A DNA stretch of 64,000 bases. Source: Protaetiibacter sp. SSC-01 (GTDB lineage Bacteria; Actinomycetota; Actinomycetes; Actinomycetales; Microbacteriaceae). The DNA is taken from NCBI RefSeq assembly GCF_014483895.1, contig NZ_CP059987.1, positions 1,302,001-1,366,000 on the forward strand. The letters run 5' to 3'. Of this stretch, positions 19,782 to 23,736 are shown piece after piece. The position numbers were made by a program, and so were the translations under genes. The first letter of the stretch is position 1; each line of letters opens with the position of its first letter. The notes beneath the pieces were generated by a model, which made no database searches, was not told where the DNA came from, and saw nothing but the letters and a program-made list of their open reading frames with translations.

Positions 19782-19835
19782 ACGAGAGGCGACGTGATTC
19801 GTCGCGATGGGGCCGCACAGCCCCCGAGGAGAACG

Positions 19836-21965
19836 ATGGCCACATCCGGCCAGAAGACCCGCAGCGGGTCGAAGTCGTCCGCGTCCCGCAGCACGCAGCG
19901 GCGCCGCGCCCACCAGGACGAGACGGGCATCATCCCCGTGCTCGCGCGCGTCGTGCGCGGCATCGAGAACGCCGCCGAGCGTGGCAAGGTCAACGCCGCG
20001 AACCGCGTGCGCTACCGCGTCGTCGCGGTGCTCGCGCGCGAGGAGCGCGCCCGCATCAAGGCGGATGCGGGCCTCTCCGAGGCGGAGCGCACGAAGGAGC
20101 TCACGCGCCTCGACGGCATCGCGACGATCATGGCGAAGACGGCCGCACGCGACGCGAGCCTCATCCAGCTGCTCACCGACACGGCGCCGCTGAGCCCCGC
20201 GGCGCAGGAGGTGCGCCGCACGCTCCTCATGGAGGCCGGAACGCCGCTCGCGCCCGAGGACCTCGTCGTGGTCACGGAGCCCGAGGCGAAGCCCGTCGTC
20301 GAGGAGAAGCAGGTCGTGCCGGTCTCGGTGCGCCAGTACCAGATGTCGAACCCGTTCCTCGCGCCCGACTTCGCGGCCTACCAGCAGCCGAAGCCCAAGC
20401 CGCGCGGCGACCTCGACAGCTGGGAGCTCATCGAGCCGCTGTTCCGCTCCTTCGAGGTCGGTGCGGGCGGCGGCGCCGCGAGCATGGAGCTCCCCGAGGC
20501 CCGCTCGCTCGCGACGCCCGGCGGCATCGAGCTCATGCGCCACCAGGCACGCTTCGTCGAGTCCGCGCGCGAGGGCCACCGCACCTACCTGCTCGCCGAC
20601 GAGCCGGGCCTCGGCAAGACCGCCCAGGCGCTCCTCGCGGCCGACGTCGCGAACGCCTACCCGCTCCTCGTCGTCGTGCCGAACGTCGTCAAGGTCAACT
20701 GGGCGCGCGAGGTCGAGAAGTGGACCCCGCATCGCACGGCGACCGTCGTGCACGGCGACGGCGACGACGTCGACGCGTTCGCCGACATCGTGGTCGTGAA
20801 CTACGAGATCCTCGACCGTCACGTCGCGTGGCTCTCGCGTCGCGGTTTCCGCGGCATGATCGTCGACGAGGCGCACTTCATCAAGAACAAGGAGTCGCAG
20901 CGCTCCAAGAACGTGCAGGCGCTCTCGGCATCGATCCGCCGCCAGTTCCCGAACCCGCTGCTCGTCGCCCTCACCGGCACGCCCCTCATCAACCAGATCG
21001 AGGACTTCCGGATGATCTGGCAGTACCTCGGCTGGATCGACGAGAAGAAGCCGCTCCCGGCGCTCATGGAGCGCCTCGAGGAGACGGGCCTCACGCCCGT
21101 CGACCCGGGGTTCTTCGCCGCGGCGCGTCGCGTCGTCGTCGACATGGGCATCGTGCGCCGCAAGAAGGTGGATGTCGCGGCCGACATCCCCGCGCGCCGC
21201 ATCGCCGACATCCCCGTCGAGCTCGACGGCGAGGCCGGCCGCTCGATCCGCGAGGCCGAGCGTGCGCTCGTCGGCCGCCTGCTCGAGCGTCTGCGCCGCC
21301 TCCGTGCGTCGCGCCCGGACTCGGAGCTCGCCGACCTCATCCGCCTCGTCGCGGCGGCCGAGCTCGAGGAGTCGAAGCAGTCGGAGTCGTCGGGAGTCAA
21401 CGTCTTCGCGATGGTGCGCCGCATCGGCCAGGCGAAGGCCACACCGGCGGCGGACTACACCGTCAACCTCGCGCGCAACGTCGGCAAGGTCGTGTTCTTC
21501 GCGAAGCACATCGACGTCATGGACGCGGCCGAGGCGCACTTCGCGAAGGCGGGCCTCAAGACGATCTCGATCCGCGGCGACCAGAACTCGAAGGTGCGCC
21601 AGGCGGAGATCGACGCGTTCCAGAACGACCCCGAGGTCTCGGTCGCGGTGTGCTCGCTCACCGCGGCGGGCGTCGGCGTCAACCTGCAGGCGGCGTCGAA
21701 CGTCGTGCTCGCGGAGCTCAGCTGGACGAACGCGGAGCAGACGCAGGCGATCGACCGCGTGCACCGCATCGGCCAGGAGCTGCCGGTCACGGCGTGGCGC
21801 ATCATCGCCGCTCAGACGATCGACGGACGCATCGCGGAGCTCATCGACGCGAAGGCCGGTCTCGCGGCCCGCGCGCTCGACGGCGAGGCGGGCGAGGCGG
21901 CCGAGGGCTCGGTGCAGCTCGAGGCGCTCGTGGCGCTTCTGACGGATGCGGCGCGCTCCCTCTGA
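19836..21965 (+). CDS. SNF2-family DEAD/DEAH-box helicase
   Basis: A double-stranded DNA translocase/helicase of 709 residues. A Lys/Arg-rich N-terminal region of about 230 residues precedes the motor core. Motifs are: ADEPGLGKTAQALL (motif I, about residue 255), VVVPNVVKVNW (Ia), IVDEAHFIKN (II), LVALTGTPL (III), and in lobe 2 VCSLTAAGVGVNLQAAS (V) and QAIDRVHRIGQ (VI). ATG 19836 follows GAGGAGAA. It resembles actinobacterial SMARCAL1-like helicases. No nuclease or methyltransferase gene adjoins, so there is no sign of a defence island. A structured leader precedes it. Confidence 0.93.
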   Translation: MATSGQKTRSGSKSSASRSTQRRRAHQDETGIIPVLARVVRGIENAAERGKVNAANRVRYRVVAVLAREERARIKADAGLSEAERTKELTRLDGIATIMAKTAARDASLIQLLTDTAPLSPAAQEVRRTLLMEAGTPLAPEDLVVVTEPEAKPVVEEKQVVPVSVRQYQMSNPFLAPDFAAYQQPKPKPRGDLDSWELIEPLFRSFEVGAGGGAASMELPEARSLATPGGIELMRHQARFVESAREGHRTYLLADEPGLGKTAQALLAADVANAYPLLVVVPNVVKVNWAREVEKWTPHRTATVVHGDGDDVDAFADIVVVNYEILDRHVAWLSRRGFRGMIVDEAHFIKNKESQRSKNVQALSASIRRQFPNPLLVALTGTPLINQIEDFRMIWQYLGWIDEKKPLPALMERLEETGLTPVDPGFFAAARRVVVDMGIVRRKKVDVAADIPARRIADIPVELDGEAGRSIREAERALVGRLLERLRRLRASRPDSELADLIRLVAAAELEESKQSESSGVNVFAMVRRIGQAKATPAADYTVNLARNVGKVVFFAKHIDVMDAAEAHFAKAGLKTISIRGDQNSKVRQAEIDAFQNDPEVSVAVCSLTAAGVGVNLQAASNVVLAELSWTNAEQTQAIDRVHRIGQELPVTAWRIIAAQTIDGRIAELIDAKAGLAARALDGEAGEAAEGSVQLEALVALLTDAARSL

Positions 21966-22024
21966 CCCTCAACCATCTAGCGAGACTTCACGTCTTGTGC
22001 CGCATCGGCGGCTGAGTAATCTCT
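21965..22024 (+). promoter_or_regulatory. Promoter-like repeat, copy A (drives candidate ncRNA A)
   Basis: This 60-base element begins ACCCTCAACCATCTAG and ends CTGAGTAATCTCT. It matches copy B (22361-22420): 31 of the first 33 bases are identical, and the last 13 are identical. TTGTGC (21995-22000) and TAATCT (22017-22022) with a 16-base spacer make a plausible sigma-70-type promoter. The conserved upstream part may bind a regulator. It begins at the helicase stop codon. Confidence 0.6.
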
Positions 22025-22145
22025 TCATCACTGGAAGGCACGGATCCCCTCGGGGGTCGGCCAGAAGGTGACAGAAAGGCCCCCGGGCTCGACGAACCCC
22101 GGCGCTTCGGCGCAGGCGGAACGCGGCGACGGGGGCCTTTCGTCG
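22025..22145 (+). ncRNA. Candidate small RNA A (about 120 nt)
   Basis: A non-coding segment between promoter-like copy A and a strong terminator. It contains CCCC-tc-GGGG near 22047-22056, closed by CTGG/CCAG, and the terminator loop holds GCGC-TTCG-GCGC, a UUCG tetraloop hairpin. No plausible reading frame with a ribosome site is present. The known bacterial RNAs I considered (SRP RNA, tmRNA, RNase P RNA) do not match. Expression and boundaries are inferred only. Confidence 0.45.
22075..22140 (+). terminator. Terminator of candidate RNA A
   Basis: AAAGGCCCCCG (22075-22085) pairs perfectly over 11 bp with CGGGGGCCTTT (22130-22140), followed by CGTCGT. The 44-base loop contains its own UUCG-capped hairpin. 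The A-rich and T-rich stem ends are typical of intrinsic terminators. Confidence 0.75.
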
Positions 22146-22267
22146 TGCCGGCGTACGGGGCGAAGAGTGGCACGCCGCGCGCGGCCGCGTCAGTCCCCCG
22201 CTCTGGGGGGAGCGGTCGCGGGGAGCGTGCTCATATCGTGATGACTGCACTAGTTGGGGGACTAGCA

Positions 22268-22341
22268 GGCGGCGGTGATCCTGTCATCATCGCGATTCCG
22301 ATACGGGGGTATGAGGGATCGCGGACAGCATCACCGCCGCC
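22268..22341. other. Long 74-base imperfect hairpin
   Basis: An 18-bp stem with one mismatch (22268-22285 with 22324-22341, starting GGCGGCGGTGAT) continues into a 9-bp stem CGCGATTCC/GGGATCGCG (22291-22299/22315-22323) and an ATAC-gggg-GTAT tip. The left arm can also pair elsewhere: GATGAC (22240-22245) complements GTCATC (22283-22288), which overlaps the main stem, so two folds exclude each other. It lies between terminator A and promoter copy B. There is no T-run on either side, so it is not an ordinary terminator. Confidence 0.6.
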
Positions 22342-22360
22342 AGTATTTAACCCGTCGGGC

Positions 22361-22420
22361 ACCCTCAACCATCTAGTGAGACTTCACCTCTTGCGGCCCC
22401 TCCGGCGCTGAGTAATCTCT
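22361..22420 (+). promoter_or_regulatory. Promoter-like repeat, copy B (drives candidate ncRNA B)
   Basis: This is the second copy of the element at 21965-22024. TTGCGG (22391-22396) and TAATCT (22413-22418) are 16 bases apart, as in copy A. The upstream 33 bases differ from copy A at only two positions, whereas the spacer sequence differs. That pattern fits a promoter with a conserved upstream binding site. Confidence 0.6.
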
Positions 22421-22845
22421 ACTCAACCGATGAGGCGCGAACCCGAAGCCACCGGAGAGATCCGGAAGCCGAGGGGCTCGCAGCCGACGTCGGCGGTGAT
22501 CTCCACGAACCGAGCGGGTCAGCCCGCGCGGGGTGTGGAGCGGCCCCAAGGGTATGCGGAGCGAGAGTTCCGTCCGTGGGGCAGCACCGGTGGTACGGAT
22601 GACGTCCCGCAGCCGAACGACGGCGGGCCCCTGGGCCTGTCGACGACCGAGCGGGACCGATTCCGCGGGGCCGAGAGGCTCCGCGGGGGAGATCCCGCCG
22701 CCGGCGCCGCCTCGGGTGCACGCGGTCCGCCGCGCGCCTCCGAGCTGCCGCCGACCTGGCGAACGCCCGACCCGAGAGCTCGCGGGACGCGGCGGCCTCA
22801 CCGACACAGAAGGGCCCCGGACCAGCTACCCGGGGCCCTTCGTCG
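22421..22845 (+). ncRNA. Candidate structured non-coding RNA B (about 420 nt)
   Basis: A non-coding segment bounded by promoter copy B and a strong terminator. Local helices include CCGGA-GAGA-TCCGG (22452-22465) and a 10-bp stem 22663-22672/22677-22686 with one wobble, both capped by GAGA (GNRA) tetraloops in plus-strand sense. CTCCAC/GTGGAG (22501-22506/22535-22540) encloses GCGGG-tcag-CCCGC. Open frames crossing it run antisense into pabC and have no ribosome site. It lacks the RNase P GAGGAAAGTCC core and the tmRNA ends. A 6S/Ms1-like role is possible but unsupported. Confidence 0.5.
22809..22841. terminator. Strong terminator between ncRNA B and pabC
   Basis: GAAGGGCCCCGG (22809-22820) pairs perfectly over 12 bp with CCGGGGCCCTTC (22830-22841), with a 9-base loop. 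The symmetrical A/T ends make it usable on both strands, so it can end RNA B and the minus-strand pabC transcript. Confidence 0.85.
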
Positions 22846-22863
22846 TGTGCGCTGGATGCGAGG

Positions 22864-23736
22864 TCACTCCGTGCGCGCATCGAGCGCGGCGTTCATGCGC
22901 GCCGTGAGCTCCGCGTCGATGGCGCGAGCGGCGCCGTCGACGGCGCGCACGGGCGCGACGTGACGCACGCTCGAGACGAGCCACGCCGCATCCGCCGCTG
23001 CGAGGTCGTCGGGCGTCAGCAGCTCGTAGCCCGTCGCGAATCCGGCCGACTCGGCCCACGCGAAGAGGTCGGCCTGCGTCGTGCCGGCGAGGATGCCGAT
23101 GTCGACGCGCGGCGTCACGAGACGGCCGCCCATGCGCATGACGAGCGTCGACGTCGGGCCCTCGAGGAGGTAGCCGTCGCTCGAGACGAAGAGCACGTCG
23201 TCGGCACCGCGTCGCGCGGCCTCGCGCTGCACGGCGCGGTTGACGGCGTAGCTGAGGGTCTTGGCGCCCGCGAGGAGCCACGGCGAGGTCTGGGAGACGT
23301 CGTGGCGGTAGCCGCGGTCGAGGAGCACGATGCGGATGCCGTCCGTGCGATCCGCCGTGAAGTCGGGTGAGTCGGTGCCGAACACCCAGCCGGTCGGCAC
23401 CCCTGCGCCCTCGACGCCGCGCGTGAGAACGAACTTGATCGACCCCTCGGTCACCCCGCCCGCGGTGAGGGTCGCACCGACCTCGCGCACGGCATCCCGC
23501 CACACGTCGATGTCGGGTGCGGGGAGCTGGAGCATCGCGGCGGACTGCACGAGCCGCTGCAGATGCGCCTCGAGCGCCTGGACGCTGCCGTGGACGAGGC
23601 TCGCGGTCTCGAAGATGCCGTCGCCGCGCGTCGCGCCGAGGTCGGTCACGAGCAGCTGCGGCGCATCCGGGTCGACGAGGCGGTGGCCCGTCGCGGCGCC
23701 CGCGGCGTCGAAGTCGATGAGGGCGACGACGTTCAT
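22864..23736 (-). CDS. pabC: Aminodeoxychorismate lyase-like / class IV aminotransferase
   Basis: A PLP enzyme of the fold-type IV (BCAT/PabC/DAAT) family, 290 residues. Visible blocks are TDLGATRGDGIFET (substrate loop), LAGAKTLSYAVNRAVQREA with the PLP Lys (about residue 148) in LAGAKTLSY, and DDVLFVSSDGYLLEGPTSTL. The order and length fit 4-amino-4-deoxychorismate lyase (p-aminobenzoate for folate), but D-amino acid or branched-chain transaminase activity cannot be excluded. ATG 23736 overlaps the stop of the small upstream gene (ATGA), so the two are cotranscribed. Confidence 0.82.
   Translation of the reverse strand: MNVVALIDFDAAGAATGHRLVDPDAPQLLVTDLGATRGDGIFETASLVHGSVQALEAHLQRLVQSAAMLQLPAPDIDVWRDAVREVGATLTAGGVTEGSIKFVLTRGVEGAGVPTGWVFGTDSPDFTADRTDGIRIVLLDRGYRHDVSQTSPWLLAGAKTLSYAVNRAVQREAARRGADDVLFVSSDGYLLEGPTSTLVMRMGGRLVTPRVDIGILAGTTQADLFAWAESAGFATGYELLTPDDLAAADAAWLVSSVRHVAPVRAVDGAARAIDAELTARMNAALDARTE

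What the first reader, a model, noticed from the sequence alone, without database searches (positions are those of the whole stretch)
21965..22845. Tandem, apparently undescribed ncRNA locus with duplicated promoter element
The only large gene-free stretch holds two copies of a 60-base element (21965-22024, 22361-22420). Thirty-one of the first 33 bases and the last 13 match, while the middle diverges. Each copy contains TTG-N19-TAATCT in the same geometry and is followed by a GC-rich non-coding segment (about 120 and about 420 nt) ending in a perfect 11-12 bp terminator. Segment B has two stems capped by GAGA tetraloops and segment A has a UUCG-capped stem, all in plus-strand sense. I match neither to a known RNA class. 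Two co-regulated structured RNAs in tandem would be a new system.
Basis: partly seen in the sequence, partly recalled or inferred. Interest (0 to 1): 0.8.

Follow-up and report, generated by a model that had tools for sequence, protein, structure and literature searches.

The report
Three-RNA locus with twin G-loops
In an actinobacterium of the family Microbacteriaceae and some of its relatives, a stretch without protein genes appears to encode three small structured RNAs that no RNA database recognises, one of which carries two G-rich loops that could catch the known C-rich-loop RNA called 6C.

Summary
A 60-bp promoter-like element is duplicated (21965, 22361) and each copy precedes a structured, hairpin-ended, non-coding segment: A (about 120 nt) and B (about 420 nt). 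Neither matches Rfam. Both are conserved in relatives. B keeps 139 predicted pairs in 7 species, 31 with changes on both sides (0 of 500 shuffles reach this), and two of its loops vary only as GNRA. The element occurs at most twice per genome, in 12 of 85 sampled Microbacteriaceae genera, each time before an A/B-type RNA where I looked, so it resembles a dedicated promoter.

Its -10 box stands at a fixed distance in 37 of 38 homologues. Its hairpin stems covary, while the two loop G-runs stay.

All 39 M genomes also have a 6C RNA; the C-run loops of a mycobacterial 6C are known to act on a G6 tract.

Best reading: three undescribed sRNA genes, with M a decoy for 6C (inferred, about 0.4). Intermolecular covariation was tested and not established. 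Transcription is unproven. What A and B do remains open.

The parts
19794..21965 (+). SNF2-type helicase gene, the usual upstream neighbour
   Evidence: Pfam SNF2-rel_dom and Helicase_C; upstream on the same strand of M in 32 of 39 genomes
21965..22024 (+). Promoter element copy 1: conserved block, TTG at 21995-21997, TAATCT at 22017-22022, start expected near 22028
   Evidence: only two copies in this genome even at 3 mismatches
22028..22145 (+). RNA A: 5' hairpin 22028-22071 with purine-rich internal loop, short linker, terminator 22074-22141
   Evidence: + strand more stable than - in 24 of 24 homologues
22195..22214 (+). C-run/G-run box upstream of M; similar TGGGGGCAGCG-like boxes in many relatives
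   Evidence: read by eye from the 38 upstream regions printed
22234..22239 (+). -10 box of M (TATCGT)
   Evidence: TANNNT 21-23 nt before the first G-run in 37 of 38 upstream regions; one further match at 10-59 nt
22240..22352 (+). RNA M: hairpin 1 22250-22265 (GGGG loop), hairpin 2 22268-22341 (apical AUAC-GGGG-GUAU at 22301-22312), tail AGTATTTAAC
22361..22420 (+). Promoter element copy 2: TTG at 22391-22393, TAATCT at 22413-22418
22424..22843 (+). RNA B: multibranched, about 420 nt, GNRA tetraloops, terminator 22809-22841
   Evidence: + strand more stable in 7 of 7
22864..23736 (-). Aminodeoxychorismate-lyase-like gene (pabC), convergent neighbour
   Evidence: Pfam Aminotran_4; best NCBIfam models aminodeoxychorismate lyase, scores at or below their cut-offs; downstream and opposite in 25 of 39 M genomes

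Best explanation
The stretch holds three small-RNA genes in a row, all on the + strand. A and B belong to one family: each is driven by a copy of a promoter element for which no other use was found in the genome, and each has a body closed by a helix, an ACWGAA-type linker and a GC-rich terminator. The body ranges from a 24-nt hairpin to a 400-500-nt multibranched fold. M is a third RNA with its own promoter; it displays two G-runs on hairpin loops. Shown by comparison: the structures of B and M, the strand, the conservation, and the restricted use of the promoter element. Inferred: that they are transcribed as separate RNAs; that one transcription factor drives A and B together; that A and B are one family; and that M works as a decoy whose two G-run loops pair with the two C-run loops of the 6C RNA encoded elsewhere in the same genome, keeping 6C off its mRNA targets. 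My estimates are about 0.9 for three real structured RNA genes and about 0.4 for the 6C-decoy step. A and B most likely act as protein-binding or base-pairing regulators; I cannot name the partner.
For: B: 139 pairs, 94.2% of cells paired, 31 pairs with double changes against 14.0 in shuffles, 0 of 500 reaching it; sliding the partner drops pairing to 40-46%. M: 22 pairs in 33 sequences, 91.2% paired, 16 pairs with double changes against 7.6, 0 of 500; slid 24-62%. In that alignment both G-runs (G18-21, and C66 with G67-71) are invariant while the stems change. M's -10 box sits 21-23 nt before the G-run in 37 of 38, with no comparable box on the other strand in 39. Promoter element: 42 copies from 11 genera aligned, block conserved and spacer free; a profile search finds 27 of 299 family genomes, 26 of them at E<=1e-10 and one doubtful at 0.0096, with at most two copies per genome; the twelfth genus, g23, also has an A-type RNA after it. 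6C is present in all 39 M genomes: 37 by the Rfam model at E<=0.5, none above its cut-off, and the two others by DNA similarity. The longest exact complement between M loop 1 and a 6C loop is >=6 nt in 37 of 39, and 9-10 nt in 5 of 9 genomes of this genus; for M loop 2 it is >=5 nt in 39 of 39. In Mycobacterium abscessus, either C-loop of B11 (the mycobacterial 6C; identity recalled) is enough to repress a 5' UTR with six Gs, and matching changes in loops and UTR restore repression (PMC10470900, passages seen).
Against: No transcript data were available. Own-genome M/6C complementarity (mean 6.72) is hardly better than between genera (6.51), and several genomes (G017, G040, G307, both of g38) have a C opposite A next to the G-run, so intermolecular covariation is not established; G-runs and C-runs pair by nature. 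In 12 of 39 genomes (g43, g104, g105, g109) the hairpin-1 stem is not kept, and in both g109 genomes the first G-run is only four long. 6C also occurs in genera without an M hit, so 6C does not need M. One of the five covariation measures for M, the number of further pair types, is not above shuffles (28 against 26.4; 142 of 500). Within the genus, covariation in A is weak (1 of 42 pairs with a double change); its support comes from comparing folds between genera, not from one alignment.
Confidence: 0.55

Rival explanations
1. M is a real small RNA, but its G-run loops are read by a protein or form an intermolecular G-quadruplex, or pair with C-rich mRNA stretches, not with 6C.
For: The loop G-runs are invariant in the 33-sequence alignment. 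Bases flanking the G-runs do not track the 6C loops. 6C is found also in genera where M was not.
Against: A known C-run-loop RNA is present in all 39 M genomes, and the loops of a mycobacterial 6C are known to act on a G-run.
Confidence: 0.4
2. A and B are RNA-polymerase-binding RNAs of the 6S/Ms1 type, filling the gap in a family for which neither was reported.
For: Microbacteriaceae are not in the table of families with predicted Ms1 (PMC9130861, section read). B is large and structured.
Against: No Rfam hit to 6S. Ms1 synteny is a HAD hydrolase with an oxidoreductase or other genes, not SNF2 helicase/pabC. B is multibranched, not a long bubble-bearing rod (the 6S shape is recalled). Found in only 12 of 85 genera.
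Confidence: 0.07
3. M is a 6C-like RNA transcribed from the minus strand, where its loops would read CCCCC.
For: The reverse complement has C-run loops; weak reverse-strand matches of the M model exist in 2 genomes.
Against: No Rfam 6C match even at E<=5. -10 box only on the + strand. + strand folds better in 34 of 39. A separate 6C gene is present in the same genome.
Confidence: 0.04
4. The segments are not independent RNAs but processed 3' ends of the helicase mRNA or mere terminators.
For: The first element begins at the helicase stop codon (21965).
Against: Conserved promoter elements and a separate -10 for M. M lies elsewhere in 6 of 39 genomes (in a seventh the contig ends), and L070-L074 and L076 show no helicase in the stretch fetched.
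Confidence: 0.06

Closest known systems
6C RNA (Rfam RF01066; B11 in mycobacteria)
   Same: Two hairpins, each with a homopolymer run in the loop, the second hairpin GC-rich and followed by a TTTAA-like tail; comparable size; actinobacterial.
   Different: M has G-runs instead of C-runs, different stems, a different promoter and location, and no Rfam match.
RNA sponges or decoys of sRNAs in bacteria (general class, recalled)
   Same: M offers loops complementary to the C-loops of a conserved sRNA.
   Different: Binding is not shown; M is a stand-alone gene whose two loops mirror both loops of 6C.
Ms1 RNA of Actinobacteria (PMC9130861)
   Same: Structured, weakly conserved RNA in an intergenic region with conserved synteny.
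   Different: Other synteny and architecture, family not listed for Ms1; RNAP binding untested.
Large ornate bacterial RNAs such as OLE, GOLLD, ROOL, raiA (recalled)
   Same: B is a roughly 420-nt multibranched RNA with GNRA loops.
   Different: No Rfam match; B has a small partner A under the same promoter, and its body differs greatly in size between genera.

Membership tests
6C RNA (RF01066) | Match to the Rfam covariance model | tested here: not met
   None in 21800-23000 at E<=5, both strands
6C RNA (RF01066) | C-runs in both hairpin loops of the transcribed strand | tested here: not met
   G-runs on the + strand; + strand supported by the -10 box and folds
sRNA decoy/sponge of 6C | Loop complement to the C-loops of 6C | tested here: met
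   >=6 nt in 37 of 39 for loop 1, >=5 nt in 39 of 39 for loop 2
sRNA decoy/sponge of 6C | Co-variation of the two partners | tested here: inconclusive
   Own-genome mean 6.72 against 6.51 between genera
sRNA decoy/sponge of 6C | Binding and titration of 6C in the cell | not testable with these tools
   Needs experiment
Ms1 RNA | Conserved flanking HAD-hydrolase/oxidoreductase genes | tested here: not met
   Neighbours are SNF2 helicase and pabC; Ms1 synteny from PMC9130861
Ms1 RNA / 6S RNA | Binding to RNA polymerase | not testable with these tools
   Needs co-immunoprecipitation
6S RNA | Match to an Rfam 6S model | tested here: not met
   No 6S match at gathering score in the window or 14 homologous loci
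Protein-coding gene | Frame kept across homologues | tested here: not met
   Gap runs not multiples of three: 50 of 50 in B, 8 of 8 in A, 182 of 202 in M; stops alone do not exclude A, where one frame number is stop-free in 7 of 7 (rows not in one register)

The most novel reading that the evidence does not exclude
M is a dedicated antagonist of the 6C RNA: a mirror-image RNA with two G-run loops that captures both C-run loops of 6C. It is encoded in a three-RNA module with two further RNAs (A, B) that share an otherwise unused promoter and whose bodies have been exchanged or expanded from about 24 to about 400-500 nt while the ends stayed fixed.
Probability: 0.35. Interest if true: 0.75.

Novelty: new variant of a known kind. 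Interest (0 to 1): 0.62.

Why it matters
6C is a widely kept actinobacterial sRNA (recalled), and searches of an open-licence paper library turned up no antagonist of it. A partner RNA with mirrored loops would give a direct handle on how 6C is controlled. A and B add two unclassified structured RNAs; B is large, elaborately folded and strongly supported by covariation. The restricted promoter element predicts a dedicated regulator that could be pulled down with it.

Tried and rejected
Rejected. 6C on the minus strand. Ms1/6S membership. Coding potential. Phage or plasmid origin: no plasmid match, and only a 44-base match to the B terminator region in one Streptomyces phage held under two accessions. 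Intermolecular covariation of M with 6C: tabulated by eye and tested, not established.

Errors corrected on the way. In one search the pattern picked wrong C-runs as 6C for some genomes; searches replaced it. Alignment A5 had nine reversed rows and was not used; A6 replaced it. Alignment A1, used for model R1, misaligns the variable inner stem. A2 aligns the A hairpins of different genera badly and served only as a set of sequences. My notebook gave 28 of 39 for the intact hairpin 1; the recount is 27 of 39.

Rows left out. A6 holds 33 of 39 M sequences (G164, G160, G215, G264, G188, G323 not included; five of these lack the hairpin-1 stem, so the 82.3% paired there is flattering; one search covers all 39). 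The B alignment holds 7 of 9 genus copies (two shorter ones, G001 and G007, left out). The promoter alignment holds 42 of 49 candidates: two in the window plus 40 of the 47 entries; the 7 dropped were not promoter-like, G292 and G299 among them. In the pattern search the reversed control also hit twice. G299 (E 0.0096) was not counted.

M searches in 347 genomes drawn from the order (own family included) found only the own genome. The likeness of the TGTCC-N10-GGACA box upstream of M to the 6C promoter (mean best 12.4 of 20 against 10.1 shuffled) was not pursued: it rests on mononucleotide shuffles of C-rich DNA and is absent in many genera.
Full report
WHAT IS THERE. The window comes from a Microbacteriaceae genome; a genome of the same genus, G004, has a contig of the same length (3,290,533) as Homoserinibacter gongjuensis NZ_BSVA01000001.1. 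Downstream of an SNF2-type helicase gene (19794-21965) and convergent with a pabC-like gene lie two 60-bp copies of a promoter-like element, 85% identical, 396 bp apart. Each is followed by a segment that folds better than shuffled sequence (A z -3.35, B z -5.24) and ends in a 12-bp hairpin. Rfam finds nothing above gathering score in the window, and in 14 homologous loci only a tRNA.

THE PROMOTER ELEMENT. Forty-two copies from 11 genera align without gaps over a block of about 30 bp that ends in the -35 TTG. Thirteen columns are invariant, the spacer is free, and a GAGTAATCTC-like -10 follows in many of them. A profile of it finds 27 of 299 family genomes, 26 of them (12 of 85 genera) at E<=1e-10 and one doubtful at 0.0096; no genome has more than two copies. 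In the nine genomes of the genus, three mismatches reveal no further copies. The copy in the twelfth genus, g23, also precedes an A-type RNA. A fixed upstream block with a free spacer fits an activator-dependent promoter used for these RNAs; the activator is inferred.

RNA A. In 24 of 24 homologues the + strand is the more stable. In 20 of the 24 the minimum-energy fold has exactly two domains, the 5' hairpin and the terminator hairpin; the others are L086 and L093 with three, and L089 and L091 with one. The 5' hairpin keeps its form while its letters change: for example ACU-GA-GGGGC-GCAA-GCCCC-GA-AGU against ACU-GA-GGAAC-GCAA-GUUCC-GA-AGU in two species of one genus, and CGCC-GGA-AGG-GAAA-CCU-GAA-GGCG in another. 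Within the own genus A is too similar to be informative (1 of 42 pairs with a double change).

RNA B. In seven species of the genus 139 pairs were predicted; 94.2% of cells are paired, and 31 pairs change on both sides against 14.0 in shuffles (0 of 500). Sliding the partners by one to three columns drops pairing to 40-46%. Two loops vary only as GNRA: GAGA or GUGA in one, GAGA, GUGA or GCGA in the other (read). In two species a roughly 100-nt insertion stands in place of a third loop. Copies range from 107 to 523 nt. A and B share the promoter, a closing helix, an ACWGAA-type linker and the terminator type (read), so I regard them as one family with very different bodies; this is an inference.

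Between A and B lies a third unit. A model from 20 homologues finds it in 36 of 299 family genomes and 15 of 85 genera; in 347 genomes drawn from the order, own family included, a second model matched only the own genome. Its -10 (TANNNT) is 21-23 nt before the first G-run in 37 of 38. Hairpin 1 is fully paired in 27 of 39, with changes such as U-A to C-G and A-U to G-C; the other 12 (g43, g104, g105, g109) do not keep this stem. On 33 of the 39 sequences 22 pairs give 91.2% paired, 16 with double changes, 0 of 500 shuffles reaching this; the number of further pair types alone does not exceed shuffles (142 of 500). The + strand folds better in 34 of 39. In the 33-sequence alignment the loop G-runs are invariant; among all 39, loop 1 has only four Gs in the two g109 genomes. 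M lies downstream of the helicase on the same strand in 32 of 39 genomes, elsewhere in 6, and in one the contig ends. A/B-type promoters and M occur together far more than by chance: 22 of 26 A/B genomes have M, against 36 of 299 in all; 11 of 12 genera, against 15 of 85. Shared descent accounts for part of this.

M AND 6C. The own genome has a 6C RNA elsewhere (42.1 bits, cut-off 47), with two C-run loops. All 39 M genomes have 6C: 37 by the model at relaxed E (none above cut-off) and 2 by similarity to the own 6C. M loop 1 is complementary to a 6C loop over at least 6 nt in 37 of 39, and over 9-10 nt in 5 of the 9 genomes of this genus (AGUUGGGGG with CCCCCAACU); loop 2 over at least 5 nt in 39 of 39. 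In M. abscessus the 6C homologue B11 (identity recalled) uses either C-loop to repress an mRNA with six Gs in its 5' UTR, with compensatory mutants (PMC10470900, passages seen). The title of Mai et al. 2019 on C-rich loops of 6C was seen only as a reference entry. Hence the proposal that M is a decoy for 6C. Against it, the letters next to the G-runs do not track 6C (6.72 own against 6.51 cross), and 6C occurs in genera without an M hit.

LITERATURE. Searches for 6C sRNA, for 6C with sponge RNA, for G-rich with C-rich loops, and for small RNAs in Microbacteriaceae, Clavibacter and Leifsonia xyli listed no report of these RNAs (listings and abstract beginnings only). The library holds open-licence papers only. 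Of PMC9130861 I saw the outline, one section and passages.

VERDICT. Three structured RNA genes are well supported by comparison; no transcript was seen. The 6C-decoy mechanism is the most testable reading, but it is not shown.

Noticed in passing
L080, L086, L087, L090 and other M loci, upstream of M: In several genera other than the own one, M is preceded by a 20-bp inverted repeat TGTCC-N10-GGACA and then a TGGGGGCAGCG-like box; a similar TGTCCTCC-N4-GGAGTACA dyad overlaps the 6C promoter in several genera.
   Followed up: partly
6C upstream regions (in L158-L194): The spacer of the 6C promoter often holds a short inverted repeat ending near the -10 box, with different letters in different genera: 13 of 37 against 3.9 expected from shuffles.
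   Followed up: partly
L074:4256-4733: In genus g43 (genome G305) two nearly identical A-type RNAs lie in tandem, close to a gene that I read by eye as the 3' end of nusA (no tool call made for that name).
   Followed up: no
L070, L071, L072: In genera g19 and g33 the element drives a B-like RNA with no helicase in the stretch fetched; in G040 (g33) M is at the helicase while the element lies about 100 kb away on the same contig.
   Followed up: partly
G164:C1:3205728-3205800: A second, partial M-model match (34.7 bits, positions 29-105) elsewhere in one genome.
   Followed up: no
G000:C1:2485325-2485400 and relatives: The 6C matches of 37 of the 39 M genomes all score below Rfam's gathering cut-off and the other two were not found by the model, although both C-run hairpins are plain; the cut-off of RF01066 probably misses many Microbacteriaceae.
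   Followed up: partly
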